A DNA stretch of 32,483 nt from an uncultured Anaerolineae bacterium (GTDB lineage: Bacteria; Chloroflexota; Anaerolineae; Anaerolineales; Villigracilaceae): NCBI GenBank assembly GCA_903854805.1, contig CAINXK010000063.1:1-32483 (forward strand). The letters are read 5' to 3'. Of this stretch, positions 12,531-26,583 are shown piece after piece. Under the pieces are notes generated by a model that was given only the letters and a program-made list of their open reading frames with translations, was not told the DNA's origin and did no database searches. The position numbers and the translations under genes are program-made. Position 1 is the first letter of the stretch, and each line of letters starts with the position of its first letter.

Positions 12531-12562
12531 TCACAATTGTGAGTACAATATCACATATGTGA
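12531..12562. promoter_or_regulatory. Operator pair, two 12-bp palindromes 20 bp apart
   Basis: TCACAATTGTGA (12531-12542) and TCACATATGTGA (12551-12562) are both perfect palindromes whose centres are exactly 20 bp apart, two helical turns. They lie just downstream of the minus-strand -10 box and upstream of the plus-strand dehydrogenase. The same architecture recurs at 14830 and 21603. A SorC-family tetramer is the natural candidate to bind. Confidence 0.85.
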
Positions 12563-12564
12563 AT

Positions 12565-12593
12565 ATTATAAATCCAGGCACAGCGTTTGTCAA
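12565..12593 (-). promoter_or_regulatory. Consensus sigma-70 promoter of the decarboxylase gene
   Basis: On the minus strand TTGACA (12593-12588), 17 bases, then TATAAT (12570-12565). All twelve positions match the consensus, so the promoter should be strong and needs the adjacent operators to be silenced. Confidence 0.85.
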
Positions 12594-12615
12594 ATTCCAT
12601 ATTGGAGAGCTTGCC

Positions 12616-13662
12616 ATGTCAGCAGATACGATGAGAACCGTTGTCTATTTAGGCCCTGAACAGGTCGAATTACGCCTGGTACCGATCCCGGAACCGCAAG
12701 CGGGCGAACTGCTCGTGCGCGTGCGGGCTGCCACCACCTGTGGCACAGATGTAAAAACCTACCGGCGCGGCCATCCGAAGTTTCCGCCACCTTTTGCTTT
12801 CGGGCATGAATTTGGCGGAGATGTTGTTAAAGTTGGAGCTGGAACGCAGACGTTCCATGCCGGGATGCGAGTCACAGCCAATGTTTTTGCCGAGTGCGGA
12901 GAATGTTTTTTCTGCCAACATGGCCAGGGCAACCTGTGCGAAAACCTGGTCTACAATTTTGGTGCCTTTTCCGAATACATGATCATTCCGGCTTCGATTG
13001 TCAGGCGGACAACATTTGAAATCCCGGCGCACATCTCATACGCGCAGGCGGCAATTGTCGAGCCGCTGGTCACTGTGGTGGGCGGCCAGCGTATTATCGG
13101 CATCCAGCCAGGTGAGACAGTCGCCATCTTTGGCGCGGGTGGAGCAGTTGGATTGATGCACCAGCAAATGGCGCTGCTGGCCGGGGCGGAACGAGTGATC
13201 GCCGTTGGGCATAGCCAGGCGCGCTTGCAAGCTGCGGCAAGGATGGGGGCCGACCCGATCATAAACGCCAAAAACACCGACGCTGTAGCCGCCATCCGAG
13301 ACCTGACGGGTGGCAGGGGTGCGGATGTGGTCATCGAATGTGCGGGTTCGCTTTCTGCCTGGGAAAATGCAGTTCAGGCGGTGCGCCGAGGCGGACGGGT
13401 GCTGTGGTTCGGCGGGCTGCCCAGTGGCACAAAGATCACGCTGGATTCAGCCCTGATTCATTATGGCGCCATCACACTGTATAACTCGCACGGCGGCACG
13501 GCTGTGGATGCGCGCGAAGCTTTTCGCCTGATCACCAGCAAAGAAGTGGATGTACAGTCCCTCATCTCAGGCGAGCTACCCCTGGAAGGGCTGGAAACCG
13601 CCCTCAAGAAAATGATCGCCGGAGAAGTCATCAAAATGGCGATCAATCCTGACCTGCCATAA
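12616..13662 (+). CDS. Zinc-dependent medium-chain dehydrogenase (sorbitol/threonine dehydrogenase-like)
   Basis: A 348-residue NAD(P)-dependent alcohol/polyol dehydrogenase. Catalytic zinc ligands are visible as Cys42 in TTCGTD and His64-Glu65 in AFGHEFGG. The structural zinc loop has four Cys (94, 97, 100, 108) in ECGECFFCQHGQGNLC. The Rossmann motif is FGAGGAVGLM at ~172-181. The start chosen is ATG 12616 (MSADTM), with GGAG 9-12 bases upstream; an in-frame ATG 57 bases earlier overlaps the operator. It likely oxidises a polyol or sugar-phosphate hydroxyl in the pathway fed by the PTS. The divergent decarboxylase gene shares the operator pair. I see no clean plus-strand promoter within the operators. 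The substrate cannot be fixed from sequence. Confidence 0.9.
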   Translation: MSADTMRTVVYLGPEQVELRLVPIPEPQAGELLVRVRAATTCGTDVKTYRRGHPKFPPPFAFGHEFGGDVVKVGAGTQTFHAGMRVTANVFAECGECFFCQHGQGNLCENLVYNFGAFSEYMIIPASIVRRTTFEIPAHISYAQAAIVEPLVTVVGGQRIIGIQPGETVAIFGAGGAVGLMHQQMALLAGAERVIAVGHSQARLQAAARMGADPIINAKNTDAVAAIRDLTGGRGADVVIECAGSLSAWENAVQAVRRGGRVLWFGGLPSGTKITLDSALIHYGAITLYNSHGGTAVDAREAFRLITSKEVDVQSLISGELPLEGLETALKKMIAGEVIKMAINPDLP

Positions 13663-14085
13663 CCACAAGATTAGAGTTTTTGGCAGCGCTTTTACGCGCT
13701 ATTTTCCAAAGAAACATCGTATCATTCGTCCATTCGGCACTTATTCGTGATAAAAAACACCCACATTAGCCCCTGCAATTACTGCGCTTGTTAAGCACAA
13801 GCCCCAGGCAGCACGAATTAATATTTTTCATCCACTAATCTGGGGGGAATCTGAACTAACTTCTAAAAAAATGGAAACCATTCCCAGGCAGTCGTTAGGG
13901 TCCGCAAAAGAATAAGTTCCATCACGCATTGAAACGCTGTCAGCGCGAGGCCCGCTTTTTGGCGCGTGGCGATCTCCGAAAGAACAGCAACGCCATCTTA
14001 ACGAGTTCAGCGGGTGCCCAAACACCCACGTTGGATGGCGCCGAGAGAAGTTAACAATTACACTCCCCAAGCGTAAAAAAGAATA
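13663..14085. other. Gene-free stretch of ~420 bp with small inverted repeats
   Basis: No gene is supported here. An 80-codon minus-strand frame (14070-13828) has only a TTG start and no good ribosome site. Several short dyads occur, for example CCCCAG near 13802 with CTGGGG near 13841, and GGGTG/CACCC around 14010-14027. Base composition is less regular than in the flanking genes. It separates two convergent genes (the dehydrogenase and the nitroreductase), which normally need far less space. Confidence 0.4.
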
Positions 14086-14598
14086 TTACCAATGCTCGTA
14101 GTGAACCAATTCGGTGAGTGGTTTGCGAATTTTTGGCCCGGGCAGGTCAGCCGGATAGCCGAGCGGAGTAAAGATAACCGGCTCGACCTCGGCGGGTAGT
14201 CGCAAAACGTCACGCGCCGCATCCATATTAAATGCCGCCACCCAGCAGGTACCCAACCCAAGATTGGTTGCTGCCAGAATCAGGTGATCTGCCACAATGG
14301 CAGAGTCGATCAAACGGGCGTTAAAGCGGTCACTTTCACGCACCCAGGCCTGAGAAGAAATCGCACAAACTGCGATCAGCAACGGCGCCTGCACAAACCA
14401 GGGACGGCGATAGATGCGCCCAAGCTCGGCTTCGCGGCCAGTGGTCTGGATGACCACCAGCTGAACCGGCTGACGGTTCGCCGCAGTCGGCGCAAGTCGG
14501 GCGGCTTCAAGCACTTGTTGCAGCTTTTCATCTTCAATCCTGTCCGGGCGGTAAGCCCGCACACTATAGCGTTTGGCGATCAACTCGGAAAATTCCAT
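14086..14598 (-). CDS. Nitroreductase-family FMN oxidoreductase
   Basis: A 170-residue flavin enzyme of the nitroreductase superfamily. FMN-contact segments are RYSVRAYRPD near the N-terminus, APTAANRQPVQLVVIQ at ~35-50, and GLGTCWVAAFNMDAAR at ~112-127. It ends KPLTELVHYEHW, typical of the family. Of two ATGs, the second (14598, MEFSEL) has GGAG at a better distance (9 bases) than the first (14604). It has no N-terminal ferredoxin and no signal peptide. The natural substrate is unknown; members reduce nitro compounds, quinones, flavins or enones. It sits divergent from the PTS operon, about 230 bp from its operator pair, so co-regulation is possible but not shown. Confidence 0.88.
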   Translation of the reverse strand: MEFSELIAKRYSVRAYRPDRIEDEKLQQVLEAARLAPTAANRQPVQLVVIQTTGREAELGRIYRRPWFVQAPLLIAVCAISSQAWVRESDRFNARLIDSAIVADHLILAATNLGLGTCWVAAFNMDAARDVLRLPAEVEPVIFTPLGYPADLPGPKIRKPLTELVHYEHW

Positions 14599-14797
14599 TC
14601 TCATTCACTCCTGAACCAGAATACTTGATCAAAGTTTAACATACAACAACCAGCTGGACGCCGCAGAACAGACCTGGCAATCTACAGTACATCGTGCCCG
14701 AACCTGGATATCTGGACACATGTGGACCGAATCGCTTGCTTTGCGCAGCAGGTCAAGTCATCGTGAGAACCAATATTCAAATCAGAAATTAAAACTA

Positions 14798-14829
14798 TTG
14801 ACTTTCGAGTTTCTGCATGCTATTATAAT
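14798..14829 (+). promoter_or_regulatory. Promoter of the PTS operon
   Basis: TTGACT (14798-14803), 17 bases, then TATTAT (14821-14826); an overlapping TATAAT lies at 14824-14829. The operator pair begins immediately downstream. The 200 bp between this promoter and the nitroreductase start show nothing else I recognise. Confidence 0.7.
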
Positions 14830-14861
14830 TCATATTAGTGAATCGTAATTCACAAAATTGA
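14830..14861. promoter_or_regulatory. Operator pair upstream of the UroD-like gene
   Basis: TCATATTAGTGA (14830-14841) and TCACAAAATTGA (14850-14861) are imperfect versions of the TCAC-N4-GTGA palindrome. They start exactly 20 bp apart, as in the other two pairs. Between them GTGAAT/ATTCAC (14838-14853) makes a further dyad that bridges the inner half-sites. Confidence 0.7.
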
Positions 14862-14875
14862 ATTCGGAGCCCAGA

Positions 14876-16054
14876 ATGCCTGAAACGATGACACCCCGCG
14901 AACGCGTAGAAGCCACGCTCAATCACAAAGAACCGGACCGGGTTCCGATTTCTCTTGGGGGATCGGCCAATCATCTAACCGAGCAACGCTATCTTCTTTT
15001 ACGCGATCACTTTGGTGTCCAGGATGTGCCGCGCCGTACCCTGGTGGGATTCTACACAACCCCAGATTACAACCCGGTCCTGGATAAATTAGGCACCGAT
15101 TTTCGTTTTGTGCACATGCGCCCGCCAACGAACTATATTTCAAATCCGATGGAAGGTGATTTCAAAGAATTTACCGATGAGTGGGGTTTGCAGCACCGGC
15201 TTGTCTCGGGTTACTACGATATGGGCGGAGCGCCTTTGGCCAAGGACTTGAGCAAGGAAAGCATCAAAAATTTTCACTGGCCCGATCCTTATGACCCCAT
15301 CCGAGTTGCGGGGCTAAAAGAAGAAGTCGAAAACCTTTATAACAATACCGATTATTCGATCGTCGCTCACCGTCCGGTTTATGGCAACCTGTGGGAAATG
15401 GTGCGCGTGCTGGTTGGCATGGAAAATGCCCTGATGATGACCACACTGGATACCGCCATGTTTGACGCTTTGCTGGGGAAATTGGCTGAAATTCAGAATG
15501 GTTTTTATGATGCCTTCCTGAGTGTGGTCGGGCCTTATGTGCAAATTGTAGAAATGGCCGATGACTATGGCACCAATGTTGGGCCCATGTTTAACCCGAA
15601 GATTTACAAGCAATTCTTGATGCCGCATTATAAAAAGACAATCGAACTGATTAAGAAAAAAGCTCCCCAGGCCAAAGTCTTGCTGCACAACGACGGCGCA
15701 ATCCGGAAGTTCATTCCAGACCTGATCGAGACCGGTTTCGAGGTATTGAATCCGATCGAGGCGCACCTGGTGGGCATGGACCCGGTCGGACTGAAGCGTG
15801 ATTTTGGCAAAGAGATCACTTTCCAGGGTGGCGTGGATATTAAGCGCGTCATGACGCAAGGCTCGCTGGAGGATATTCGCGGCGAGGTGCGGCTGCGGAT
15901 TGAACAAATGGGAAACGACGGCGGCTATATTCTGGCGCCGGCGCATAACTTTGGCAATGACATCCCTCTTAATAATATGCTGGCTTTCTTTCAAGCCGGT
16001 CATGAACTTGGCTTTTACCCTCTTAATACAGCGCCCAGTGGGCCAGGAAAATAA
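14876..16054 (+). CDS. Uroporphyrinogen decarboxylase-superfamily protein, first gene of the PTS operon
   Basis: A 392-residue member of the UroD/MtaA superfamily. The N-terminus TPRERVEATLNHKEPDRVPISLGG is the standard opening of the non-haem members. The barrel ends with AKVLLHNDGAIRKFIPDLIETGFEVLNPI and FQGGVDI. In MtaA-type methyltransferases a His-x-Cys zinc motif occupies the HNDG position; here it is His-Asn-Asp, so a thiolate zinc site is not evident. True UroD is unlikely, as no haem gene is near. The start is ATG 14876 with GGAG 7-10 bases upstream; an in-frame TTG at 14858 would lie in the operator. Only 1 bp separates it from the aldolase-fold gene. Its biochemical role in sugar catabolism is unknown. 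Confidence 0.85.
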   Translation: MPETMTPRERVEATLNHKEPDRVPISLGGSANHLTEQRYLLLRDHFGVQDVPRRTLVGFYTTPDYNPVLDKLGTDFRFVHMRPPTNYISNPMEGDFKEFTDEWGLQHRLVSGYYDMGGAPLAKDLSKESIKNFHWPDPYDPIRVAGLKEEVENLYNNTDYSIVAHRPVYGNLWEMVRVLVGMENALMMTTLDTAMFDALLGKLAEIQNGFYDAFLSVVGPYVQIVEMADDYGTNVGPMFNPKIYKQFLMPHYKKTIELIKKKAPQAKVLLHNDGAIRKFIPDLIETGFEVLNPIEAHLVGMDPVGLKRDFGKEITFQGGVDIKRVMTQGSLEDIRGEVRLRIEQMGNDGGYILAPAHNFGNDIPLNNMLAFFQAGHELGFYPLNTAPSGPGK

Positions 16055-16055
16055 T

Positions 16056-16718
16056 ATGCTCCTTGAGGAACTCCGCCGTAAAGTTCTGGAAACTGCCAAC
16101 CTGCTGCCAAAATTTGGGCTGGTATGGATGGCGGGCGGCACAGTTTGTGCGCGTGACCCGCAAACCGGTTATGTGATTGTTACGCCCAGTGGCATGCCTT
16201 ATGAAAACCTGACCCCTGCCGATATGATCGTGACCGATATTAACATGAATCTAATTGATGGAAAAAACCGCCCATCAGTTGCCCTCAACCTGTGGACCGG
16301 TTTTTTCTTAGCGCGACCCGAAATTCACGCCGTGGTGCATACGCACTCGCCTTACGCCACCGCCTTTTCAGTCATCAACGAAGCAATCCCGATCATTACC
16401 GAAACCCAGGCCGATTGGTTCGGCCAGCCAATCCCGGTGGCGCCTTACCTGTCTGTGGAAGATCAGCGCTTCGCCAGCTTGCCGGTGCAAATATTGGCTG
16501 ATGGGTTTGGGGTGCTTTTGGGCCAGCACGGAGTTATCACAATCGGAAGAACTTTAGACCAGGCCCTCGAACGAGCCGTTACACTGGAAGAAGCCGCGCG
16601 TACCTATGCCATCGCCAAGAGCATCGGCTCACCTCTGGTTTTCAGTAACCAGATGGCGCACAGTTCATTTGAGTACTACCACAACCGCTATGGACAGCGC
16701 AGCGAAAAACACGAATAG
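16056..16718 (+). CDS. Class II aldolase/adducin-fold protein with altered catalytic positions
   Basis: A 220-residue protein of the family containing fuculose-phosphate aldolase and ribulose-phosphate 4-epimerase. The phosphate-binding segment VTPSGMPYENLTPADMIV is intact, and metal ligands are present in VVHTHSPYATA (two His) and LLGQHGVITIG (third His). Two usual catalytic features differ. The GN-(V/L/I)-S motif is GGTVCAR. The Glu that follows PSS in fuculose aldolase is Ala (PSVALNLWTGF). It may therefore catalyse another reaction or use another base. The start ATG 16056 lies 1 bp after the upstream stop; a longer frame inside the UroD-like gene is a shadow. It is followed after 12 bp by PTS IIA. 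Confidence 0.88.
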   Translation: MLLEELRRKVLETANLLPKFGLVWMAGGTVCARDPQTGYVIVTPSGMPYENLTPADMIVTDINMNLIDGKNRPSVALNLWTGFFLARPEIHAVVHTHSPYATAFSVINEAIPIITETQADWFGQPIPVAPYLSVEDQRFASLPVQILADGFGVLLGQHGVITIGRTLDQALERAVTLEEAARTYAIAKSIGSPLVFSNQMAHSSFEYYHNRYGQRSEKHE

Positions 16719-16730
16719 GAGCAGATCACT

Positions 16731-17192
16731 TTGTTGGCATTCAGCGAATTATCGATAATCATAGATCTGGATGTGCAGGATGCACATACGGTCATCAGTC
16801 TTCTGGCAGAGAAGTTGCATGCGCAGGGCCTGGTCTCGGCCGATTATGGCAACCAGACCTGGGCCAGAGAGCTTGAACATCCAACCGGACTGCCCACCTC
16901 GCCTTTTGCGATTGCGTTTCCACACGCCGATGCTGAAGGTGTCCACCAATCGGCTCTGGCAATTGCCATCTTGCGCACACCGATCCAATTTAAGAACATG
17001 GCTGATCCGGATGAAAGTCTGGATGTATTTATTGTTTTAATGCTAGCTAATAAGAACCCGGAAGAACAAATTCAAACCTTACGAAACCTGGCTTTGCTTT
17101 TTGGTCAGCCAGAAAAACTGGTCGCTTTACGCGAGCAGGTCAGTCTCCAGGCTGTAGAGGCCTGGCTTAAGCAAGAACTTCTGCTTGAGTAG
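16731..17192 (+). CDS. gatA: PTS IIA component, fructose/mannitol/galactitol type
   Basis: A 153-residue cytoplasmic phosphocarrier of the PTS EIIA type-2 family, passing phosphate from HPr to IIB. The phosphorylated residue is His65 in SPFAIAFPHADAEGV. The start is TTG 16731 with AGGAG 9-13 bases upstream; the next TTG 3 bases on is an alternative. Length and motif fit the stand-alone IIA of galactitol systems. It lies in the order aldolase-fold, IIA, IIB, IIC. A 120-bp gap with a hairpin follows before IIB, unusually long for this operon. Confidence 0.92.
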   Translation: MLAFSELSIIIDLDVQDAHTVISLLAEKLHAQGLVSADYGNQTWARELEHPTGLPTSPFAIAFPHADAEGVHQSALAIAILRTPIQFKNMADPDESLDVFIVLMLANKNPEEQIQTLRNLALLFGQPEKLVALREQVSLQAVEAWLKQELLLE

Positions 17193-17197
17193 GCATG

Positions 17198-17239
17198 TGT
17201 CCGAGTGGTTGAACCTCGGCAAGGAGGTCAAAGACAACC
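17198..17239 (+). other. Structured gap between IIA and IIB with tRNA-Ser-like segment
   Basis: TGTCCGAGTGGTTGAA at 17198-17213 reads like the D-arm of bacterial tRNA-Ser or tRNA-Leu. It runs into a nested hairpin: GGTTG (17207-17211) with CAACC (17235-17239) outside, and ACCTC (17213-17217) with GAGGT (17224-17228) inside. No acceptor, anticodon or T arm can be completed, so it is not a tRNA gene. It may be a tRNA fragment or an RNA element affecting IIB expression. Confidence 0.45.
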
Positions 17240-17312
17240 GTAGGTAGTTATATTTGTCGCGACAGGCTTAATAGCCGGCAACCAGATCAAATTCAAGGAG
17301 GCAGAGTAATCC

Positions 17313-17612
17313 ATGAGCAAATTAATAGTCGTTGCATGTGGAGCTGGAATCAATACATCCACAATCGCTGAAGATTCCATTCGAGAGCGTGTGGCCCAGG
17401 AAGGTATGACGGACGTACTGGTCAAAAGGATTTTGATGGCTGACATCGAGGGCTACCTTGGCCGTACAGACCTGATCATGGTTGTATCCATGATGAAAAT
17501 CTTCCGCACCTATAACGTACCGATTTTCCAGGGCATGCCTTTCCTGATTGGCTCGAAACAGGAAAGGGAAGCACTCTTAGACAAGATCGTCGCAGAAATC
17601 AAAAAAGTGTAA
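17313..17612 (+). CDS. gatB: PTS IIB component, galactitol type
   Basis: A 99-residue IIB protein, which accepts phosphate from IIA on a Cys and passes it to the sugar bound to IIC. The phosphorylated residue is Cys9 in the P-loop-like VVACGAGINTSTIAED, close to the CGTGVATST of known GatB proteins. The C-terminal FQGMPFLIGSKQEREALLDKIV matches the family ending. AGGAGG lies 13-18 bases upstream of the ATG. It is followed by IIC after 49 bp. Confidence 0.94.
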   Translation: MSKLIVVACGAGINTSTIAEDSIRERVAQEGMTDVLVKRILMADIEGYLGRTDLIMVVSMMKIFRTYNVPIFQGMPFLIGSKQEREALLDKIVAEIKKV

Positions 17613-17661
17613 CCCCGGATGATCCAATCCGTATTCAGATTTGCAAAAGGAGAATGGTAAC

Positions 17662-18957
17662 ATGGGAGTATTATCTGTTGCTGTTGGTTGGTTGCTGAGC
17701 CTTGGCTCATCACTGATCGTGATGATCGTCCTGATCATCCTTGGTCTGGTATTCCGAGTGGGCTGGCAGAAAGCTGTGCGCGGTGGCATCACCACCGGCG
17801 TTGGCCTGGCTGGCTTATTCCTGGTGGTTAATGTGATCGTCGGAGCCTTACAGCCGGCTGTGGCCGAAATGGCCACTCGTTTTGGCGTAGCCAAGACGCT
17901 GGTGGACGTTAACTGGGCTGACGCGGGCATTGCCTGGGGTTGGCCTGGCGTAGCGGGCTTGATCGTCTCGATCCTGATCGTCAATATCCTGATGCTGGTA
18001 CTCAAACTCACCAAAACCCTCTGGACTGATGTTTGGTCCTATTGGCATGGTTCTGCACTGGCTGGCTTCGTCTGGGCGCTGACAGGTGGCAACATTTTCC
18101 TTGGCATCCTGGCTGGAGTTCTGTATCTGGTAGCTGGCAGCCTGATGAGTGACATGACCGCCAAGAAATACCAGGAATTCAATGATATGCCCGGTATCGG
18201 TGTACCCTGCGGCACCACCGTTCAGGCCAGTTTGTTTGCCATGCCGGTTGTCTGGGTGTTGGACCGCATTCCTGGTCTCAAAGATTGGGATGCATCCCCA
18301 GAAGGCATCAAGAAACGCTTCGGTTTGGTGGGTGAGCCTGGCGTCATGGGCTTCATACTGGGTGTCATCATCGGTATCTTCGCCTACGGCGTCGGAACCG
18401 GTGACCTGGGCATTGCCAAGATCTTGGGCTTGGGTATGAACGTGGCCGTCATGATGATGATCCTGCCCCGCATGGTCTCAATCATCGCCGAAGGCATCAT
18501 CCCGATCACAATGTCGATTGTCCAGTTCATGCGCGAACGCTTCAAGGATCGCGAGATCTACGTGGCGGTTGACTGCGCAGTGCTGTTGGGCCACCCGGCT
18601 GTGATGGCTTCCACCATCATCCTGTTCCCACTGCTCGTGCTGCTTGCGGCGGTTCTGCCCGGCGTGCAAATGCTGCCAATCGCCTCCCTGGCTGTCGTAC
18701 CCTTCTGGGCCGGCGCTGTAGTACCTTACACCAAGGGTAACGTCGTCAAAACCGTGATCGTACTCTTGCTCTACGCAATCCCCTTCATGTATTTATCCAC
18801 CTGGAGCGCCACCTCGCACACCGCCGCCTTCCAAATGATGGGTCAATACAGTGACCAGATCGGCCAGGGACTTAAGCTGGCCAGCTGGGACATGGGCGGC
18901 GATATCCTGGGTAACATCATCCAGGCTGGTTTCCGTATGTTTGGCTTTGGGGCTTAG
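17662..18957 (+). CDS. gatC: PTS IIC membrane permease, galactitol type
   Basis: A 431-residue integral membrane component of the Gat family, which carries the sugar or polyol across the membrane as it is phosphorylated. About ten hydrophobic segments are visible, for example ~16-32, ~43-63, ~95-115, ~128-155, ~228-250, ~265-285 and ~312-340. The family-like stretches include WQKAVRGGITTGVGLAGLFL near the N-terminus, DVWSYWHGSALAGFVWALTG in the middle and AVDCAVLLGHPAVMASTII towards the end. The start is ATG 17662 with AAAGGAGA 9-16 bases upstream; an in-frame TTG 21 bases earlier is less likely. A large hairpin follows the stop. Substrate class (galactitol, other polyol or sugar acid) cannot be read directly. 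Confidence 0.94.
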   Translation: MGVLSVAVGWLLSLGSSLIVMIVLIILGLVFRVGWQKAVRGGITTGVGLAGLFLVVNVIVGALQPAVAEMATRFGVAKTLVDVNWADAGIAWGWPGVAGLIVSILIVNILMLVLKLTKTLWTDVWSYWHGSALAGFVWALTGGNIFLGILAGVLYLVAGSLMSDMTAKKYQEFNDMPGIGVPCGTTVQASLFAMPVVWVLDRIPGLKDWDASPEGIKKRFGLVGEPGVMGFILGVIIGIFAYGVGTGDLGIAKILGLGMNVAVMMMILPRMVSIIAEGIIPITMSIVQFMRERFKDREIYVAVDCAVLLGHPAVMASTIILFPLLVLLAAVLPGVQMLPIASLAVVPFWAGAVVPYTKGNVVKTVIVLLLYAIPFMYLSTWSATSHTAAFQMMGQYSDQIGQGLKLASWDMGGDILGNIIQAGFRMFGFGA

Positions 18958-18977
18958 TCGGATACACAATTGAATAT

Positions 18978-19026
18978 CCAGGGGAGCTTCCACGAGGTTG
19001 GCAAAATCGTGTGGAGCTCCCCCTGG
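18978..19026 (+). other. Large imperfect hairpin after IIC
   Basis: The left arm from 18978 (CCAGGGG-AGCTTCCACGA) pairs with the right arm ending at 19026 (TCGTGTGGAGCTCCCCCTGG), with one or two bulges and a loop of about 11 bases. There is no T tract. It may protect the upstream PTS mRNA or reduce expression of the following genes. Confidence 0.65.
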
Positions 19027-19063
19027 TCTGCAAGGTTAAAATAATCCTTATTAGGAGACTGCC

Positions 19064-19378
19064 ATGTCAAAATATCGTGTCTGCGTAATCGGGGGTTGGT
19101 GCGGTAACCGGTTAGTCATGGTTGCAGAACACCTTGATGAATTATTGCAGAAGGCAGGTTATACCTGCCAGGTGAAAAGCCACAGCGTTTGGGAAAACTA
19201 CAACCAACCACCCACATCCAACCTGGTCTTGCAGCTGCTGCCAGCCTTTACCGAGGCTGAAACTGGTTGCCCGGTCATCAATATCAGACCTTTCCTGGTC
19301 GATCTTGATCATCCCCAAACCTTGGAAAAAATATTTACCCAGATCAAGGGCGATTTTGCTGTTTCAATTCAGCAATAG
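19064..19378 (+). CDS. Diverged PTS IIB-like protein
   Basis: A 104-residue protein that looks like a relative of the galactitol IIB encoded 1.4 kb upstream. The start MSKYRVCVIGGWCGNRLVMVAEHLDELL can be laid on the IIB P-loop region so that Cys13-Gly14 falls near Cys9-Gly10 of IIB. The end CPVINIRPFLVDLDHPQTLEKIFTQIK parallels VPIFQGMPFLIGSKQEREALLDKIVAEIK. The loop after the Cys lacks the Ser/Thr-rich NTST pattern, so phosphate transfer is not certain. AGGAG lies 8-12 bases upstream of the ATG. It could be a second IIB, a regulatory phospho-sensor, or an adaptor. The assignment rests on visual alignment only. Confidence 0.65.
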   Translation: MSKYRVCVIGGWCGNRLVMVAEHLDELLQKAGYTCQVKSHSVWENYNQPPTSNLVLQLLPAFTEAETGCPVINIRPFLVDLDHPQTLEKIFTQIKGDFAVSIQQ

Positions 19379-19395
19379 TTGCAGCCGGTAAAAAA

Positions 19396-20538
19396 ATGGA
19401 AAGACACCTATACTTCGATTATTGCGCAACCACACCCATCCATCCAGAGGTGCGTTCAGCCATGCTAAAAACGCTGGACCAGGATTTCGGGAATCCGTCC
19501 AGCATGCATTCCTTCGGAAAATCTGCGGCGCAGGCTATTGCTGATGCGCGCGCGGAAGTTGCCGCGGGGCTGTGCTGCAGCCCGGATGAGATCACCTTCA
19601 CCAGCGGCGCAACCGAATCGGATAACCTGGCTTTGTTGGGGGTCATGCGCCAGCAACCACCCGGCAAGACACATCTGATCACCACCTCGATTGAACATCA
19701 CGCTGTTTTACACACCGCCAAACAATTGCAAAGCGAAGGGTATCAAATTACCGTACTCTCGGTCGACGATCAGGGCCTGGTAGACCCCGCTGATGTACGC
19801 AAAGCGCTGCGCCCAGATACGGCGCTCATCTCGGTGATGCTGGTCAACAACGAGGTGGGTTCAATCCAACCTGTGGCCGAGATTGGGAAAATTGCGCACG
19901 AAAACGGGGTTTTATTTCACTCGGACGCTGTTCAGGCCATTGGACTGCTGGACGTGAATGTACAGACCCAAAACATTGACTTGCTCTCACTCTCGGCCCA
20001 CAAAATTTATGGACCCAAGGGTGTCGGCGCGCTATTTGTGCGTAAAGGTGTCAGCCTGGCACCGCTCTCGTTTGGCGGTTCGCAGGAAAACAGCCTGCGC
20101 CCAGGCACCGAAAACGTGCCCGGTATAGCCGGGCTGGGCGCAGCCATGCGCCTGACGAATCAGCACAAAGCCGTCGAAAGGGAACGCCTGAGCCGTTTGC
20201 GCAGTAGCCTCATTTCAGGGCTGCTGGAACGCATCCCCGGCCTGACCGTCAATGGACCGGCTGCGCAAGCTGCGCATGTGCTCTCGCTCAGTTTTCCAGA
20301 CGCCAATGGTGAAATGATGCTGATCCGTCTGAATGGGGCCGGCATCGCGGTTTCGATGGGCTCGGCCTGCACATCCAAAGACATTGAGCCATCGCATGTT
20401 CTAACAGCCATGCGGATGCCGCTCAGCCAGATCGATGGCACCCTGCGGATCTCGCTTGGCTACCCGACAACCGAGGCAGAGCTGCTCACCTTGCTGGAAA
20501 TATTACCCGAAATTTGGCGCAAGGCGAAGAACAATTGA
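19396..20538 (+). CDS. Cysteine desulfurase (NifS/IscS-like aminotransferase class V)
   Basis: A 380-residue PLP enzyme that takes sulfur from cysteine as a persulfide. The N-terminus YFDYCATTPIHPEVR is typical of IscS/NifS. PLP Lys203 lies in LSLSAHKIYGPKGVGALF, the cofactor-contact ATESDN at ~72-77 and His101-102 in TTSIEHHAVL. The persulfide Cys325 is in MGSACTSKDIEPSHVL, in the flexible loop. All key residues are kept, so activity is expected. The ribosome site is weak. It overlaps the SorC gene by 4 bases and follows the IIB-like gene by 17 bp. No scaffold protein (IscU/SufU) gene is next to it, so its placement in a PTS operon is unexplained. Confidence 0.92.
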   Translation: MERHLYFDYCATTPIHPEVRSAMLKTLDQDFGNPSSMHSFGKSAAQAIADARAEVAAGLCCSPDEITFTSGATESDNLALLGVMRQQPPGKTHLITTSIEHHAVLHTAKQLQSEGYQITVLSVDDQGLVDPADVRKALRPDTALISVMLVNNEVGSIQPVAEIGKIAHENGVLFHSDAVQAIGLLDVNVQTQNIDLLSLSAHKIYGPKGVGALFVRKGVSLAPLSFGGSQENSLRPGTENVPGIAGLGAAMRLTNQHKAVERERLSRLRSSLISGLLERIPGLTVNGPAAQAAHVLSLSFPDANGEMMLIRLNGAGIAVSMGSACTSKDIEPSHVLTAMRMPLSQIDGTLRISLGYPTTEAELLTLLEILPEIWRKAKNN

Positions 20539-21524
20539 CCAGAGCTGCTGTCGCAATGCCTGACTATCATCCCCCGCTGGACCGTGATTTGCTGCTGGCT
20601 GATGTTGCCGAGATGTACTACCTGGGCCGCATGCGCCAATCTGAAATCGCCAATATCATCGGTCTGACCACTTCGATGGTTTCGCGCTTGCTAACCGAAG
20701 CACATCAACGCAACATGGTGGATATCCATATTCGCAGGCCATTACAATCAGATTATGGCCTCGAAACCGCGCTCAAAGAAAAGTTTAATCTCACCACGGT
20801 CAGCGTGGTAACAGTTCGAAATCATGAAATTACCTTCCTAAAATACCTGGGTGCCGCCGGGGCACAGACCTTTAAACGCTACCTGTCGCCTGGAAGCACA
20901 ATCGGGATCGCCTGGGGCACCACCCTGAGCATACTGGCAGATGAGTTTGAAATTGCCGCTCCGATTCCAACCAAATTAGTGGAACTCGTGGGCGCAATGG
21001 GCTCTAGCAACAGCGAAAATAACGGTCATGGCACCATTATGCGCCTGGCCGAAAAATTAGGCGCCGAGCCCTATATTCTCAATGCGCCCTTCCTGTGCTC
21101 AACAGCCAGGATCGCCCAGGCTCTGCTTACAGATCAAATCCTTGCCAAGCCCTTGGCCATGGCCCAACAGGCCCAAATTGCATTACTCGGCGCTGGCAGC
21201 CTGGAGATGCCATACGCCACGCTTTTCAGGTACGGGTATTTTTCGCCAGAACTGATTGCCGATCTGCATCGGGTTGGGGCGGTTGGCAATGTTTGCGGTT
21301 TATATTTTGATATCAACGGCCAGGAAGCCCGCGCCGACTTCTGCGACCGGCTCATTACGATCAATAAAGAAGACCTGCTCTCCATTCCAATCCGAATTGG
21401 TGTCGTCGGCGGGATCGACAAGGCCAAACCCATCCTGGGTGCCCTACGCGGCGGTTATTTCAACGTCCTGGTGACAGACAACCTGACCGCAAAGCTGGTT
21501 TTGGAACAAGCAGAAAAGTGCTGA
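20535..21524 (+). CDS. SorC-family transcriptional regulator (first of two)
   Basis: A 329-residue sugar-responsive regulator. The helix-turn-helix occupies ~34-56 (RQSEIANIIGLTTSMVSRLL). The C-terminal SorC sugar-binding domain has GIAWGTTLSILADE at ~140, VELVGAMGS near 153-161 and, towards the end, IRIGVVGGIDKAKPILGALRGG. Family members bind a sugar phosphate and act as tetramers. The start is taken as TTG 20535, overlapping the upstream stop; ATG 20556 is the alternative. Its recognition helix is nearly the same as in the second SorC protein. As the last gene of the PTS operon it is probably autoregulated through the operator pair at 14830. The stop is followed by a control region for the next operon. 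Confidence 0.92.
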   Translation: MTRAAVAMPDYHPPLDRDLLLADVAEMYYLGRMRQSEIANIIGLTTSMVSRLLTEAHQRNMVDIHIRRPLQSDYGLETALKEKFNLTTVSVVTVRNHEITFLKYLGAAGAQTFKRYLSPGSTIGIAWGTTLSILADEFEIAAPIPTKLVELVGAMGSSNSENNGHGTIMRLAEKLGAEPYILNAPFLCSTARIAQALLTDQILAKPLAMAQQAQIALLGAGSLEMPYATLFRYGYFSPELIADLHRVGAVGNVCGLYFDINGQEARADFCDRLITINKEDLLSIPIRIGVVGGIDKAKPILGALRGGYFNVLVTDNLTAKLVLEQAEKC

Positions 21525-21574
21525 ATTCGCCCAGCTGGCTCGGTGTTACAACCCAGAAAAACAAGCCAAGACCA

Positions 21575-21603
21575 TTGACAATCAAAATAAAATTTGCTAT
21601 ACT
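21575..21603 (+). promoter_or_regulatory. Near-consensus promoter of the second regulon operon
   Basis: TTGACA (21575-21580), 17 bases, TATACT (21598-21603). The last base of the -10 box is the first base of the operator pair, so a bound repressor would block the start site. Confidence 0.88.
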
Positions 21604-21634
21604 CACATACGTGAGCGCTTATTCACGTATGTGA
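21603..21634. promoter_or_regulatory. Operator pair upstream of the second SorC gene
   Basis: TCACATACGTGA (21603-21614) and TCACGTATGTGA (21623-21634) lie exactly 20 bp apart. Each keeps the TCAC and GTGA ends. Position just downstream of the -10 box equals that of the pairs at 12531 and 14830. The architecture suits repression by a SorC tetramer spanning both sites. Confidence 0.88.
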
Positions 21635-22899: not shown

Positions 22900-23913
22900 A
22901 TGTCAATAGAAAGTCAAGTTCAGGAAACATTTGGTCAGAAAGTTGCCCGCTTAAAATTGTCGAATGATCAACTATTGAATGCGTACCGCACGATGAGCAC
23001 CATCCGGCAGTTCGAGTTAATGGCCGATAAATTGTATGCCATGGGAAAGGTGCACGGCACCATGCACCTTTCTGCCGGGCAGGAAGCGGTTGCAGTCGGG
23101 CTTGGCATGGCCGTTCGAAAAGATGATTACTTCATCAATCATCACCGTGGCCATGGCCACTTTATCGCCAAAGATGCCGATGTAAAACTGATGATGGCCG
23201 AGTTCATGGGCAAAGATACTGGTTACTGCCGCGGTCGCGGCGGTTCGATGCATATCGCCGACTTCCCTTCTCACAGCCTGGGAGCCAATGGCATCGTTGG
23301 CGGCGGGATTTCCTACTCGGTGGGGGTTGGGCTTGCGCTGCAAATGCAGCGCCGTCAAGAGATCGCCATCACCGTATTTGGGGATGGCGCCTCAAACGAA
23401 GGCGTTTTTCATGAGGCCCTCAATATGGCCGCCCTCTGGAAGTTACCCAATCTCTACGTCTGCGAAAACAACAAATATGGCATGTCGATGGATATCGCCA
23501 ACGCCGCAGCCAAACTGCCCATCGCCCAGCGCGCCGAAGGCTACGGCATTCCCTGGTCTTACATTGATGGCAATGACCTCCTGACGGTTTACGAGACCAT
23601 GCAAAATGCAGTCACACACATCCGTTCCGGTCAGGGGCCGGTCCTGGTCGAAGCCCAAACCTATCGCTATTTCGGTCATTCCAAAAGCGACCGGAATTTA
23701 TATCGCAGCAAGGAAGAGATTGAACATTGGCGCAACACCAAAGATCCGATCAAGCGCTTGGTCACTGATCTTTCAGAAATAGGCTTATTAAATGAAGCCC
23801 TCATCCAAGAGATTGAGCAGGAAACTGCCAGCAGCATCGCTGCTGCCGTAGCGTTTGCCGAAGCCTCTCCTGAACCTGATCCCGCTACCGTAATGGAGTT
23901 TGTTTATGCCTGA
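22900..23913 (+). CDS. pdhA: Pyruvate/acetoin dehydrogenase E1 component, alpha subunit
   Basis: A 337-residue thiamine-diphosphate subunit of a 2-oxo acid (pyruvate) or acetoin dehydrogenase. The ThDP motif is [20 protein letters not shown] (161-180) ending at Asn190-191 (CENNKYG). [11 protein letters not shown] at 81-91 and the phosphorylation-loop-like stretch [19 protein letters not shown] fit the family. Start is ATG 22900 with GAGG 8-11 bases upstream. The gene overlaps E1 beta by 8 bases. Pyruvate is the more likely substrate because enzyme I and glycolysis make it and the PTS genes lie in the same operon, but acetoin cannot be excluded. Confidence 0.93.
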
Positions 23914-24892
23914 GATTACTTACCTCGAAGCCATCCGGCAAGCCTTGTGGGAAGAGATGAAACGCGACGAACGCGTTTTCATCCTTGGTGAAGATATCGG
24001 ACGTTATGGCGGCGCCTTTGGGGTGACCACCGGCATGTTGGATGAATTTGGTCCCGAGCGCATCCGCGAAACGCCCATCTCTGAGCCCACGATCGTCGCC
24101 ACCGCGATTGGCGCTTCCTTGCTGGGTATGCGCCCGGTCGCCGAAATCATGTTCATGGATTTTGTTTTACTAACCCTCGACCAGTTGGGCAACCAGGCCG
24201 CCAAAATGCGCTATATGTTCGGTGGCAAGGCCAATGTTCCGATAGTGGTACGCATGCCCGCTGGATCGGGTACAGGCGCAGCCGCCCAACATTCCCAATC
24301 ACTCGAATCGCTCCTGATGCATCTGCCTGGCTTGAAGGTCGTCATGCCCAGCACCCCTTACGAGGCCAAAGGGCTGCTGCTGACAGCCATACGCGACCCC
24401 AACCCGGTTTGTTTTGTGGAGCACAAACTGCTTTACAAAACCAAGGGTGAGGTACCGGCAGGCGAGTACACGCTGCCCTTTGGTGTGGCAGATATCAAGC
24501 GTACGGGCAAAGATCTGACGGTGGTAGCCAACAACATCATGGTCCTGAAAACCCTGGCGGTGGCCGAAAAATTGGCCAAAGAAGGCTTCGACATCGAAGT
24601 AATCGACCCGCGCACCCTGGTACCTCTAGATCGCGAAACGATCATCAATTCGGTTTGTAAAACCGGCCGTTTGCTGGTGATCCACGAAGCCTGCCAGACC
24701 GGCGGGTGGGCTGGTGAAGTCATCGCCAGCATTGTATCCAGCCGCGCCTTTGGTTACCTGGATGCTCCCATCCGGCGCCTGGCAGGCAAAGATTGCCCGA
24801 TTCCCTACAACCGCGGCCTGGAACGCGCAGCGGTGCCACAGGAAGAAGACATTGAAGCTGAAATCCGCACGATCTTGATGGGTGGGTATTGA
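23906..24892 (+). CDS. pdhB: Pyruvate/acetoin dehydrogenase E1 component, beta subunit
   Basis: A 328-residue E1 beta subunit, which with the alpha subunit forms the ThDP site. Family signatures are [59 protein letters not shown] and [16 protein letters not shown]. Start ATG 23906 (MPEITYLEA) overlaps the upstream stop, with GGAG 8-11 bases before it. E2 starts 1 bp after its stop. Tight spacing ensures equal output with the alpha subunit. Confidence 0.94.
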
Positions 24893-24893
24893 T

Positions 24894-26294
24894 ATGCCCG
24901 TAGCCTTCATCATGCCCAAGGTCGATATGGACCAGGAAAAAGCCACCATCATCACCTGGTTGAAAAAAGAGGGCGACCTTATTAAATTGGATGAGACCGT
25001 TCTGGTGGTCGAGACCGAAAAAGTGTCCATCGAAGTATCCGCGCCAGCCACGGGCACGCTGGTAGGCATGCGCTTCAAGGCCGGCGACGTGGTCCCGATC
25101 GCGCAGGTGATCGCTTATGTCTTGCTCAGCGGCGAAACGATCAAGGATCTTCCAGCAGATCTGACCCCAGCGGCCCAACCTGCGGTGCTGCCCGCCGCGT
25201 CTGTGCCTGTCCATCAGACCGATATCAACCCGATCTCCCCCCCACCAGCCGGCGCCGCGCAGATTGCAACACATTCGGCCACGCCCATCGCCATACGCAT
25301 GGCAAAAGAATTGGGTCTTGATCTCAACCAGGTACCCACAGCGGGTGAGCGCACCACACGCGAAGATGTCGAACGCTACATCCAGGGTCGCGACCAGGCC
25401 AAAACCACGCAGGCTATGAATACCGGCAAAATTTCCGCCACCCCGGCCGCGCGGCGCATAGCCCGTGAAACCGGCGTCCCGCTGGAATCGATTGCTGGCA
25501 GCGGCCCACTTGGTCGCATCCAGGCTGCAGATATTGCTTCTGCCAGCCCGGCAGCCGCACCCGAGCATCCGCCAGTCTCTGCCAATAAATCGGAGCGACC
25601 AGCGCAAATCATCCCGCTCGCCGGCATACGCTTGAAAATTGCACAGCGCTTGCAGGCCAGCTTCCAAGAATCTCCACACATCGCACTAACCGTGGAAGCC
25701 GATGTTACCCACCTGGAAGTGGTGCGCACACACATGAACAACATTGCCATGCGTGAAAAGGCTGGCAAAATTTCGCTGACAGCCTTGTTGGTCAAGGTTG
25801 TCGCCTGGGCTTTAGAGCGCAACCCCTATATCAACGCATCTCTGATCGATAACCAGATTTACCTCTGGCAGGATGTTAATATCGGCGTGGCAACCGCCCT
25901 GGAAGACGGGCTGATTGTGCCGGTCATCCACCAGACCAACCACCTTTCTGTGCGCCAGATTGCCAATAGTCTTGCAGATTTAGGCGCGCGCGCGCGCGAG
26001 GGCCGCCTGGCTCTCTCTGATGTGCAGCGCGGCACCTTCACCATTTCAAACCTGGGCATGTTCGGTATCCAGCAGTTCCGAGCAGTCATCAACCCGCCAG
26101 AGAGCGCCATCCTGGCAGTTGGTGCAGTCCTGCGCAAACCGGTGGTGGTGGACGAACAAGATACTGTGGCCGTGCGCCCGATCATGACGATGACGATTGC
26201 CGCAGATCATCGTGTAATTGATGGCGTTGTGGCGGCACGCTTCCTGGCCGATCTGGTTCAGGGCATTGAGTTCCCAGAAACATTGTTGTATTGA
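24894..26294 (+). CDS. pdhC: Dihydrolipoamide acyltransferase (E2) with two subunit-binding domains
   Basis: A 466-residue E2 of a 2-oxo acid dehydrogenase complex. The lipoyl domain comes first with Lys43 in VVETEKVSIEVSAP. Two small peripheral subunit-binding domains follow, at ~128-164 (ATPIAIRMAKELGLDLNQVP) and ~180-215 (ATPAARRIARETGVPLESIAGSG). Most E2 proteins have one. The catalytic domain (~235-466) ends with the active-site ADHRVIDGVVAARFLADL (His439, Asp443). Linkers are Ala/Pro-rich. No dihydrolipoamide dehydrogenase (E3) gene is in the window, so E3 must be shared. Two binding domains may help hold E1 and a shared E3 at once. HPr follows 10 bp downstream. Confidence 0.94.
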   Translation: MPVAFIMPKVDMDQEKATIITWLKKEGDLIKLDETVLVVETEKVSIEVSAPATGTLVGMRFKAGDVVPIAQVIAYVLLSGETIKDLPADLTPAAQPAVLPAASVPVHQTDINPISPPPAGAAQIATHSATPIAIRMAKELGLDLNQVPTAGERTTREDVERYIQGRDQAKTTQAMNTGKISATPAARRIARETGVPLESIAGSGPLGRIQAADIASASPAAAPEHPPVSANKSERPAQIIPLAGIRLKIAQRLQASFQESPHIALTVEADVTHLEVVRTHMNNIAMREKAGKISLTALLVKVVAWALERNPYINASLIDNQIYLWQDVNIGVATALEDGLIVPVIHQTNHLSVRQIANSLADLGARAREGRLALSDVQRGTFTISNLGMFGIQQFRAVINPPESAILAVGAVLRKPVVVDEQDTVAVRPIMTMTIAADHRVIDGVVAARFLADLVQGIEFPETLLY

Positions 26295-26304
26295 GGGCTT
26301 AACC

Positions 26305-26583
26305 ATGCTTGAAACAAAAGTCAGTATCACCAACAAGGTGGGCTTGCATGCCCGCCCGGCGTCGTTGTTTGTGCAAGTGGCGAAAAAATACGCCTCCGAT
26401 ATCACAGTTTGCAATCTAACCACCGGCAGCAGCCCGGTCAACGCCAAGAGCATCATCAGCATCCTGACCCTGGGTGTGATGCAGAATCATGAGATTCTGA
26501 TCCAGGCAAATGGCGCCGACGAAGCCGACGCCATCCAGCGCCTGACCCTGCTGGTGCAGTCTGATTTTGGAGAAAGCAAGTGA
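26305..26583 (+). CDS. ptsH: Phosphocarrier protein HPr
   Basis: A 92-residue HPr that carries phosphate from enzyme I to IIA. The phosphorylated His15 lies in NKVGLHARPASLFVQ. The segment VNAKSIISIL puts Ser49 at the position of the regulatory Ser46 of Firmicutes HPr, so HPr kinase control is possible; no kinase gene is in the window. The start is ATG 26305; a longer frame running back into E2 is a shadow. Its stop overlaps the enzyme I start by 3 bases of GTGA. Encoding it next to enzyme I is common; encoding it behind dehydrogenase genes is not. Confidence 0.95.
   Translation: MLETKVSITNKVGLHARPASLFVQVAKKYASDITVCNLTTGSSPVNAKSIISILTLGVMQNHEILIQANGADEADAIQRLTLLVQSDFGESK

What the first reader, a model, noticed from the sequence alone, without database searches (positions are those of the whole stretch)
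12531..21634. Three operator pairs of one design define a regulon
At 12531/12551, 14830/14850 and 21603/21623 two 12-bp TCAC-N4-GTGA-type palindromes start exactly 20 bp apart, each pair right after a -10 box (gap -1 to +3 bases). The promoters themselves are near consensus (TTGACA-N17-TATAAT, TTGACT-N17-TATTAT, TTGACA-N17-TATACT). Repetition of symmetry, spacing and placement at three sites is very unlikely by chance. SorC proteins such as CggR bind as tetramers downstream of promoters, which suits two dimers two helical turns apart.
Basis: partly seen in the sequence, partly recalled or inferred. Interest (0 to 1): 0.82.

Follow-up and report, generated by a model that had tools for sequence, protein, structure and literature searches.

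The report
Conserved paired operators of SorC repressors
Three matching pairs of short mirror-image DNA sites sit at the promoters of a sugar-uptake and pyruvate-oxidation gene cluster, and such pairs recur beside the same kind of regulator gene in related bacteria, so they are almost certainly binding sites of the SorC-family repressors encoded there.

Summary
Pairs of TCAC-N4-GTGA dyads exactly 20 bp apart lie at 12531/12551 and 21603/21623 (perfect) and 14830/14850 (one mismatch per dyad); 200 shuffles gave none. Related Anaerolineae keep them at homologous promoters. A gene-blind scan of 301 genomes of the order found 37 pairs (at most 1 mismatch); 27 sit beside a SorC gene or genes of this cluster. 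The SorC-regulon reading is well supported; binding, tetramer and effector are inferred. The regulators are DeoR-type, not CggR-type. Pair A's spacer is a conserved -10 box (GTATAATA in 9 of 10 loci), so one operator probably shuts two divergent promoters. Most relatives show one SorC; here there are two, and the SorC1 clade has lost an arginine kept in all 169 others aligned. Operator B is imperfect in the three SorC1-clade genomes where it could be read, a suggestive sign of co-divergence. Three SorC clusters (L019, L021, L022) show no pair. New member of a known kind; neat rather than startling.

The parts
12531..12542 (.). Site A, dyad 1 (TCACAATTGTGA)
   Evidence: 10 loci tabulated, the window included
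12551..12562 (.). Site A, dyad 2 (TCACATATGTGA), 20 bp from dyad 1
12544..12549 (+). Putative -10 (TACAAT here, TATAAT in the other 9 of 10 loci) inside the site A spacer, for the divergent Zn-dehydrogenase; -35 weak
   Evidence: promoter use is inferred
12565..12593 (-). Promoter of the decarboxylase gene: TTGACA-N17-TATAAT, read on the minus strand
   Evidence: sequence
14798..14826 (+). Promoter B: TTGACT-N17-TATTAT
   Evidence: sequence
14830..14841 (.). Site B, dyad 1 (TCATATTAGTGA, 1 mismatch)
   Evidence: identical in L001
14850..14861 (.). Site B, dyad 2 (TCACAAAATTGA, 1 mismatch)
21575..21603 (+). Promoter C: TTGACA-N17-TATACT; last base shared with dyad 1
   Evidence: sequence
21603..21614 (.). 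Site C, dyad 1 (TCACATACGTGA)
21623..21634 (.). Site C, dyad 2 (TCACGTATGTGA)
20514..21524 (+). SorC1, DeoR-type SorC regulator (likely real start about 20556, from the 322-aa length of P0121); T53 in place of the arginine aligned with DeoR R34
   Evidence: PF04198 194 bits
21874..22872 (+). SorC2, DeoR-type SorC regulator (likely start 21883, from the 329-aa length of relatives); keeps R48
   Evidence: PF04198 210 bits
11860..12516 (-). 3-keto-L-gulonate-6-phosphate decarboxylase (UlaD)-like enzyme, downstream of site A
   Evidence: PF00215; best solved relative 1xbx; below the NCBIfam cut-offs
12616..13662 (+). Zinc-dependent dehydrogenase, divergent from the decarboxylase
   Evidence: PF08240/PF00107
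14876..16054 (+). URO-D-family protein, first gene after site B
   Evidence: PF01208
15951..16718 (+). Class II aldolase / ribulose-5-P 4-epimerase-like
   Evidence: PF00596
16731..18957 (+). PTS EIIA, EIIB, EIIC (galactitol-type)
   Evidence: PF00359, PF02302, PF03611
19064..20538 (+). Small EIIB-like protein and NifS-like cysteine desulfurase
22900..26294 (+). Pyruvate-dehydrogenase-type E1 alpha, E1 beta, E2
26296..28316 (+). HPr and PTS enzyme I

Best explanation
The three pairs are operators of a SorC/DeoR-type, autogenously controlled repressor system. A tetramer (two dimers) would sit on two 12-bp dyads two helical turns apart, covering roughly -7 to +25 of the promoter, and block RNA polymerase until a phosphosugar from the PTS pathway binds the effector domain and releases it. 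Pair A lies over two divergent promoters (decarboxylase and dehydrogenase), pair B before the URO-D/aldolase/PTS/NifS/SorC1 genes, and pair C before SorC2, the pyruvate-dehydrogenase-type complex, HPr and EI, so uptake, catabolism and oxidation are switched together. Shown: the sites, their conservation, their linkage to SorC genes, the promoter-like sequences beside them. Inferred: binding, tetramer, repression, inducer, operon extents, and which of SorC1 and SorC2 acts where (most likely SorC2 at A and C, SorC1 at B).
For:: pair design far above chance in the window; the same pair at homologous promoters (rows tabulated, window included: 10 for site A, 10 for B, 20 upstream of SorC); gene-blind scan of 301 genomes, 37 pairs, 27 beside SorC or this cluster; the reversed-pattern control gave 3 hits in 3 genomes; co-occurrence, Fisher p 4e-10; of the 14 genomes with SorC but no strict pair, 8 have a looser pair (20 or 21 bp, <=2 mismatches) within 300 bp upstream of SorC, against 0.002 expected from shuffles; 2 more (G012, G013) have two perfect dyads 22 bp apart before URO-D, and one (G238) a 3-mismatch pair at 20 bp before URO-D; both proteins are SorC; the best fold match of the SorC2 model is DeoR bound to DNA (8r7y). 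PMC11229326 (passages read): DeoR and CggR act as tetramers on DNA; FBP and DHAP release CggR, and dR5P is given as DeoR's effector.
Against: No binding or expression data. L019, L021 and L022 (PTS cluster, SorC 40-42% identical to SorC2, same GVTRSM motif, DNA upstream present) have no pair at spacing 20 (<=3 mismatches) nor at 18, 21-25 or 36 (<=2); L013, L023 and L025 none either. L012 has a clear site A but no clear site B. 10 of 37 order-wide pairs are unconnected with SorC, against 3 hits for the reversed control; 8 of the 10 lie in open frames of >=100 codons, but so do 4 of the SorC-linked ones (L075, L078, L081, L093). In the 15 relatives' genomes, which were chosen for their loci, the reversed control gave 6 hits against 31. 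Spacing is not absolute: 21 in L008 site B, 22 in L016 and L018. The genome-contig scan used the recognition-helix word GVTRSM, so L001-L028 are biased towards that helix; the order-wide scans are not.
Confidence: 0.88

Rival explanations
1. The pairs bind another transcription factor encoded elsewhere (for example a CRP/FNR-like or GntR-type protein), and SorC is only one of its targets.
For: TCAC/GTGA words also occur in CRP-type sites (recalled); no binding data exist here. 10 of 37 order-wide pairs lie away from SorC.
Against: Pairs lie directly upstream of SorC at loci where the stretch read shows no PTS-cluster genes (L009, L028; L074, L078, L079). CRP sites are GTGA-N6-TCAC (recalled), whereas here GTGA and TCAC are 8 apart. 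Among the 20 window proteins scanned with Pfam the two SorC proteins are the only regulators.
Confidence: 0.06
2. SorC1 and SorC2 are redundant and both bind all three pairs; the imperfect site B is only a weaker operator.
For: In most relatives one SorC is seen with sites A and B. Recognition helices differ little (TTSMVSRLL against TRSMVSRML). Genomes whose SorC keeps the arginine also show position-4 changes in site B (3 of 32 half-sites, counted by eye), and one of them, L012, has no clear site B.
Against: All 36 SorC1-clade members with a residue there lack the arginine and all 169 others have it. Site B has 2, 2 and 3 mismatches in the three SorC1-clade genomes (window, L001, G238), 0 or 1 in the 8 other site B rows.
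Confidence: 0.45
3. The pairs are chance palindromes or a dispersed repeat with no regulatory role.
For: None found beyond their shortness.
Against: None in 200 shuffles at <=2 mismatches; in the 20-row site C alignment the dyads are the most conserved stretch; placement beside promoter-like sequence recurs across genomes.
Confidence: 0.01

Closest known systems
Bacillus subtilis DeoR and the dra-nupC-pdp operator (PMC11229326; passages read)
   Same: Same protein architecture and the same type of DNA-binding domain; best fold match of SorC2 (8r7y). Two half-operators for a tetramer. Its right half-operator contains ACATATGT, the same core as the dyad at 12551.
   Different: DeoR's operator is asymmetric, pattern TTGAA/TTCAA, centres 22 bp apart (my choice of centres) and at -60 to -21; here two symmetric TCAC-N4-GTGA dyads, 20 bp, over the -10 and start. 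NCBIfam DeoR model scores 189 and 193 against a cut-off of 420.
Bacillus subtilis CggR and the gapA operator (PMC11229326; passages read)
   Same: SorC family, tetramer on two half-operators whose CGGGAC repeats are 20 bp apart, downstream of the promoter.
   Different: Different DNA-binding domain and motif; operator at +32 to +77; sequence match of SorC1 and SorC2 to full-length CggR (8r3g) only E 9e-7 and 4e-7.
E. coli LsrR and Klebsiella SorC
   Same: SorC family, closest solved full-length relatives with DeoR.
   Different: 27-29% identical over the fold; their operators were not compared here.

Membership tests
SorC family of transcriptional regulators | C-terminal sugar-binding (effector) domain PF04198 | tested here: met
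   194 and 210 bits, cut-off 27
SorC family of transcriptional regulators | N-terminal helix-turn-helix of DeoR/LsrR type | tested here: met
   Full-length matches to LsrR, DeoR and SorC; SorC2 model helices 17-32, 37-44, 48-60 and top fold match 8r7y
SorC family of transcriptional regulators | Tetramer bound to two half-operators | not testable with these tools
   The two dyads fit; oligomer and binding not tested
SorC family of transcriptional regulators | Operator at own or neighbouring operon | tested here: met
   Pairs upstream of SorC or its cluster in many genomes; exceptions L013, L019, L021-L023, L025. Site presence only, not binding
B. subtilis-type DeoR (equivalog) | NCBIfam NF053881 above its cut-off | tested here: not met
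   189 and 193 bits against 420
CggR subfamily | CggR-type DNA-binding domain and GGGAC half-sites | tested here: not met
   SorC2's match to CggR covers only the effector domain, SorC1's is weak; no GGGAC at the sites by eye
CRP/FNR operators | GTGA-N6-TCAC (recalled) | tested here: not met
   GTGA and TCAC are 8 bp apart between the dyads of all three pairs

The most novel reading that the evidence does not exclude
SorC1 belongs to a clade that lost a base-contacting arginine of the recognition helix (replaced by S, T, P or A), and its operator B has drifted with it, in the window and L001 at exactly the base that this arginine should read, while SorC2 kept the arginine and perfect operators at A and C. 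One operator design would thus have split into two channels within a single gene cluster by very few changes, uncoupling sugar uptake (B) from catabolism and pyruvate oxidation (A, C).
Probability: 0.35. Interest if true: 0.55.

Novelty: new member of a known kind. Interest (0 to 1): 0.42.

Why it matters
It gives a candidate DNA-binding motif and regulon for a SorC subfamily that recurs in the order of the window's closest relatives (Anaerolineae); my searches (listings only) showed no paper describing one. It is a clean test set for how a SorC tetramer reads two dyads (20, 21 and 22 bp versions exist in nature), and a possible small-step case of paralogues splitting a shared operator. It also suggests that a PTS, its own EI and HPr, and a pyruvate-dehydrogenase-type complex share one switch.

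Tried and rejected
Viral contigs: no SorC1 relative; six stretches with exact pairs, none with a match to the 21 window proteins used as queries, taken as chance. Three SorC relatives on named plasmids outside Chloroflexota (Streptomyces, Ponticoccus, Sinorhizobium): no pair at 18-24 bp within 3 kb (one weak 24-bp hit in Sinorhizobium set aside), so the motif may be particular to this subfamily (n=3 only). A remnant of L001's second URO-D-like gene in the leader between site C and SorC2: no match, rejected. More SorC1-clade genomes with site B: family (152 genomes), class (396) and order (400) searches. Besides G001 they gave G763 and, found only on checking the helices, G238. G763 shows SorC1, a perfect site C and the start of a second SorC, but its best URO-D match is 35%, so site B could not be read. 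G238 has the PTS cluster, a proline in place of the arginine and a site B with 3 mismatches: positions 2 and 3 of one half, position 4 of another. So 'only position 4 changes' holds for the window and L001, not for G238; co-divergence in general is a little better supported, the one-base version a little worse, and I left its probability at 0.35. The contact of DeoR R34 with the base 2.5 bp from the dyad centre comes from a 3.7 A structure that its authors treat as low confidence, and the residue match rests on my count of a 5-residue tag offset in 8r7y and on recalled DeoR numbering. A + strand promoter at site A has only a weak -35 in most loci. Rfam found nothing in the window. Papers: PMC8579813, passages only, CggR is the only regulator labelled SorC family in those passages; some searches were listings and added nothing else. 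Counts to read with care: the 24 pairs with <=2 mismatches in L001-L028 (16 of 28 loci) include two register artefacts overlapping true sites (L010 4332, L016 4325) and one unassigned site (L027 4377). In one search I tabulated 40 operators chosen, leaving out those with spacing 21 or 22, the two pairs of L082, L012's unclear site B, and the pairs not near SorC; it holds a few with 2 mismatches.
Full report
WHAT IS THERE. The three pairs are exactly where the finding puts them. At 12531/12551 and 21603/21623 all four dyads are perfect TCAC-N4-GTGA; at 14830/14850 each dyad has one mismatch. No other place in the 32,483-base window has a pair with 20-bp spacing and at most 3 mismatches in all; shuffled sequence gives 0 (<=2) and 0.09 (<=3) per window. 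Promoters A (minus strand), B and C are near consensus, with the first dyad starting -1 to +3 bases after the -10 box.

GENES. Minus strand from site A: a decarboxylase closest to 3-keto-L-gulonate-6-phosphate decarboxylase. Plus strand from site A: a zinc dehydrogenase. After site B: a URO-D-family protein, a class II aldolase or epimerase, PTS EIIA, EIIB and EIIC of galactitol type, a small EIIB-like protein (5gqs, E 0.05), a NifS-like protein and SorC1. After site C: SorC2, E1 alpha, E1 beta and E2 of pyruvate-dehydrogenase type, HPr and EI. SorC1 and SorC2 are 48% identical.

CONSERVATION. A scan of genome contigs with a SorC2 alignment gave 28 loci, all Anaerolineae or other Chloroflexi by title or by the tree's labels. 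The pair recurs at the homologous places: between decarboxylase and dehydrogenase (L001, L002, L004, L005, L006, L008, L010, L012), before URO-D (L001, L002, L004-L007, L010, L015), and before a SorC gene, with or without E1 after it (L009, L014, L024, L028; in L001 a second URO-D-like gene comes first). Counting pairs with <=2 mismatches over the 28 loci and the window, spacing 20 has 27 and no other spacing from 12 to 59 has more than 5 (spacing 36 arises from one dyad plus promoter sequence). Of the 28 loci, 12 have no such pair. Five cannot be judged because the contig begins inside the operon or at SorC (L003, L011, L017, L020, L026); L018 has two perfect dyads 22 bp apart; L013, L019, L021, L022, L023 and L025 have DNA upstream and no pair. 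L019, L021 and L022 are real exceptions as to the motif, since they hold the PTS genes and a SorC with the same recognition motif; I do not know what their SorC reads.

SPECIFICITY. In 15 relatives' genomes, chosen for their loci, the pair (<=2 mismatches) occurs 1-4 times per genome, 31 in all, against 6 for the reversed pattern. In 301 genomes of the order, scanned without reference to genes, 29 genomes hold 37 pairs at <=1 mismatch; the reversed pattern gave 3 hits. Twenty-seven of the 37 lie beside a SorC gene or genes of this cluster; 10 do not (G006:C4, G025, G053, G065, G118, G120, G160, G272, G277, G298). Eight of the 10 lie in open frames of at least 100 codons, as do 4 of the SorC-linked ones, so that is only a hint that the 10 are chance. 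Genomes with SorC (E<=1e-60) and genomes with the pair overlap in 15 of 29 and 29, p 4e-10. Of the 14 genomes with SorC but without a strict pair, 8 show a looser pair within 300 bp upstream of SorC (0.002 expected from shuffles), 2 a perfect pair at 22 bp before URO-D and 1 (G238) a 3-mismatch pair at 20 bp before URO-D; in G213 and G239 I found none, and in G082 there is no upstream DNA.

GEOMETRY. By eye, in most of the 40 operators the first dyad begins on or within 3 bases of a -10-like box (L061, L065, L078 and L079 show none clearly). By the usual numbering the pair then covers about -7 to +25, which fits a repressor that blocks initiation and not an activator (inference). Site A is special: its 8-bp spacer is GTATAATA in 9 of 10 loci (window GTACAATA), whereas spacers at B and C vary. 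On the + strand this is a consensus -10 box for the dehydrogenase; a good -35 is present only in L010. I read A as one operator over two divergent promoters.

MECHANISM. B. subtilis DeoR and CggR act as tetramers on two half-operators, and the phosphosugars FBP and DHAP break up the CggR complex (PMC11229326, passages). SorC2's model (pLDDT 88.6, one chain only) is most like DeoR on DNA. Two dyads two helical turns apart suit such a tetramer. The inducer is unknown; since the domain binds phosphosugars, a phosphorylated intermediate of the PTS pathway is most likely (inference).

TWO PARALOGUES. Nine PTS-cluster loci (L002, L004-L008, L010, L011, L015) show one SorC between NifS and E1; L003, L016 and L018-L022 show one SorC after NifS without E1 in view; L012 has it after EI. 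The window, L001 and G763 have SorC1, then site C, then a second SorC. I aligned 206 SorC proteins: the 120 best listed of each of two searches (1264 and 434 found; duplicates merged) and the window's two. The residue that is R48 in SorC2 is R in 169, missing in one fragment, and S, T, P or A in 36, which with that fragment form one clade holding SorC1 (FastTree support 1.0; again with G238 and G763 added). By the alignment and a 5-residue tag offset it corresponds to DeoR R34, reported to touch the base 2.5 bp from the dyad centre, which is half-site position 4 here. Site B in the window and L001 deviates only there (4 of 8 half-sites), against 7 of 152 in the other operators tabulated (p 8e-4) and 3 of 32 in the 8 other site B rows (p 0.02). 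G238, a deep member with proline, has site B with one position-4 change and two other changes; adding it makes 5 of 12 (p 5e-4 and 0.025). Site B has at least 2 mismatches in all 3 SorC1-clade genomes and in none of the 8 others tabulated (p 0.006), but the table leaves out L012, an arginine-type genome without a clear site B. Rows are related, so these are not true probabilities. Suggestive, not shown.

VERDICT. It is a new member of a known kind, with a possible operator split between paralogues as its most interesting part.

Noticed in passing
L001:8839-9978: A second URO-D-family gene lies between site C and SorC2 in the closest relative; in the window this stretch is a leader of about 250 bases without a matching gene.
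   Followed up: partly
window 14876-16054 and 19396-20538: A URO-D-family protein (weakly like corrinoid methyltransferases in NCBIfam) and a NifS-like desulfurase recur in this sugar PTS operon in many of the loci; their role there is not obvious.
   Followed up: no
window 19064-19378: A 104-aa protein without a Pfam match, conserved in the operon, weakly like PTS galactitol EIIB; perhaps a second, regulatory EIIB.
   Followed up: partly
L016:4345 and L018:39: Same two perfect dyads but 22 bp apart in a deep SorC branch, the spacing of B. subtilis DeoR by my reading of its centres.
   Followed up: partly
L082:1501-1603: Two operator pairs in one intergenic region between two divergent SorC genes.
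   Followed up: no
L019, L021, L022: PTS clusters with a SorC of the same recognition motif but no recognisable operator pair.
   Followed up: partly
L025, within 220 bases upstream of 8966: In a distant SorC relative a perfect TCACAATTGTGA dyad with a half-dyad about 19 bp before it (by eye), suggesting that the motif is older than this subfamily.
   Followed up: no
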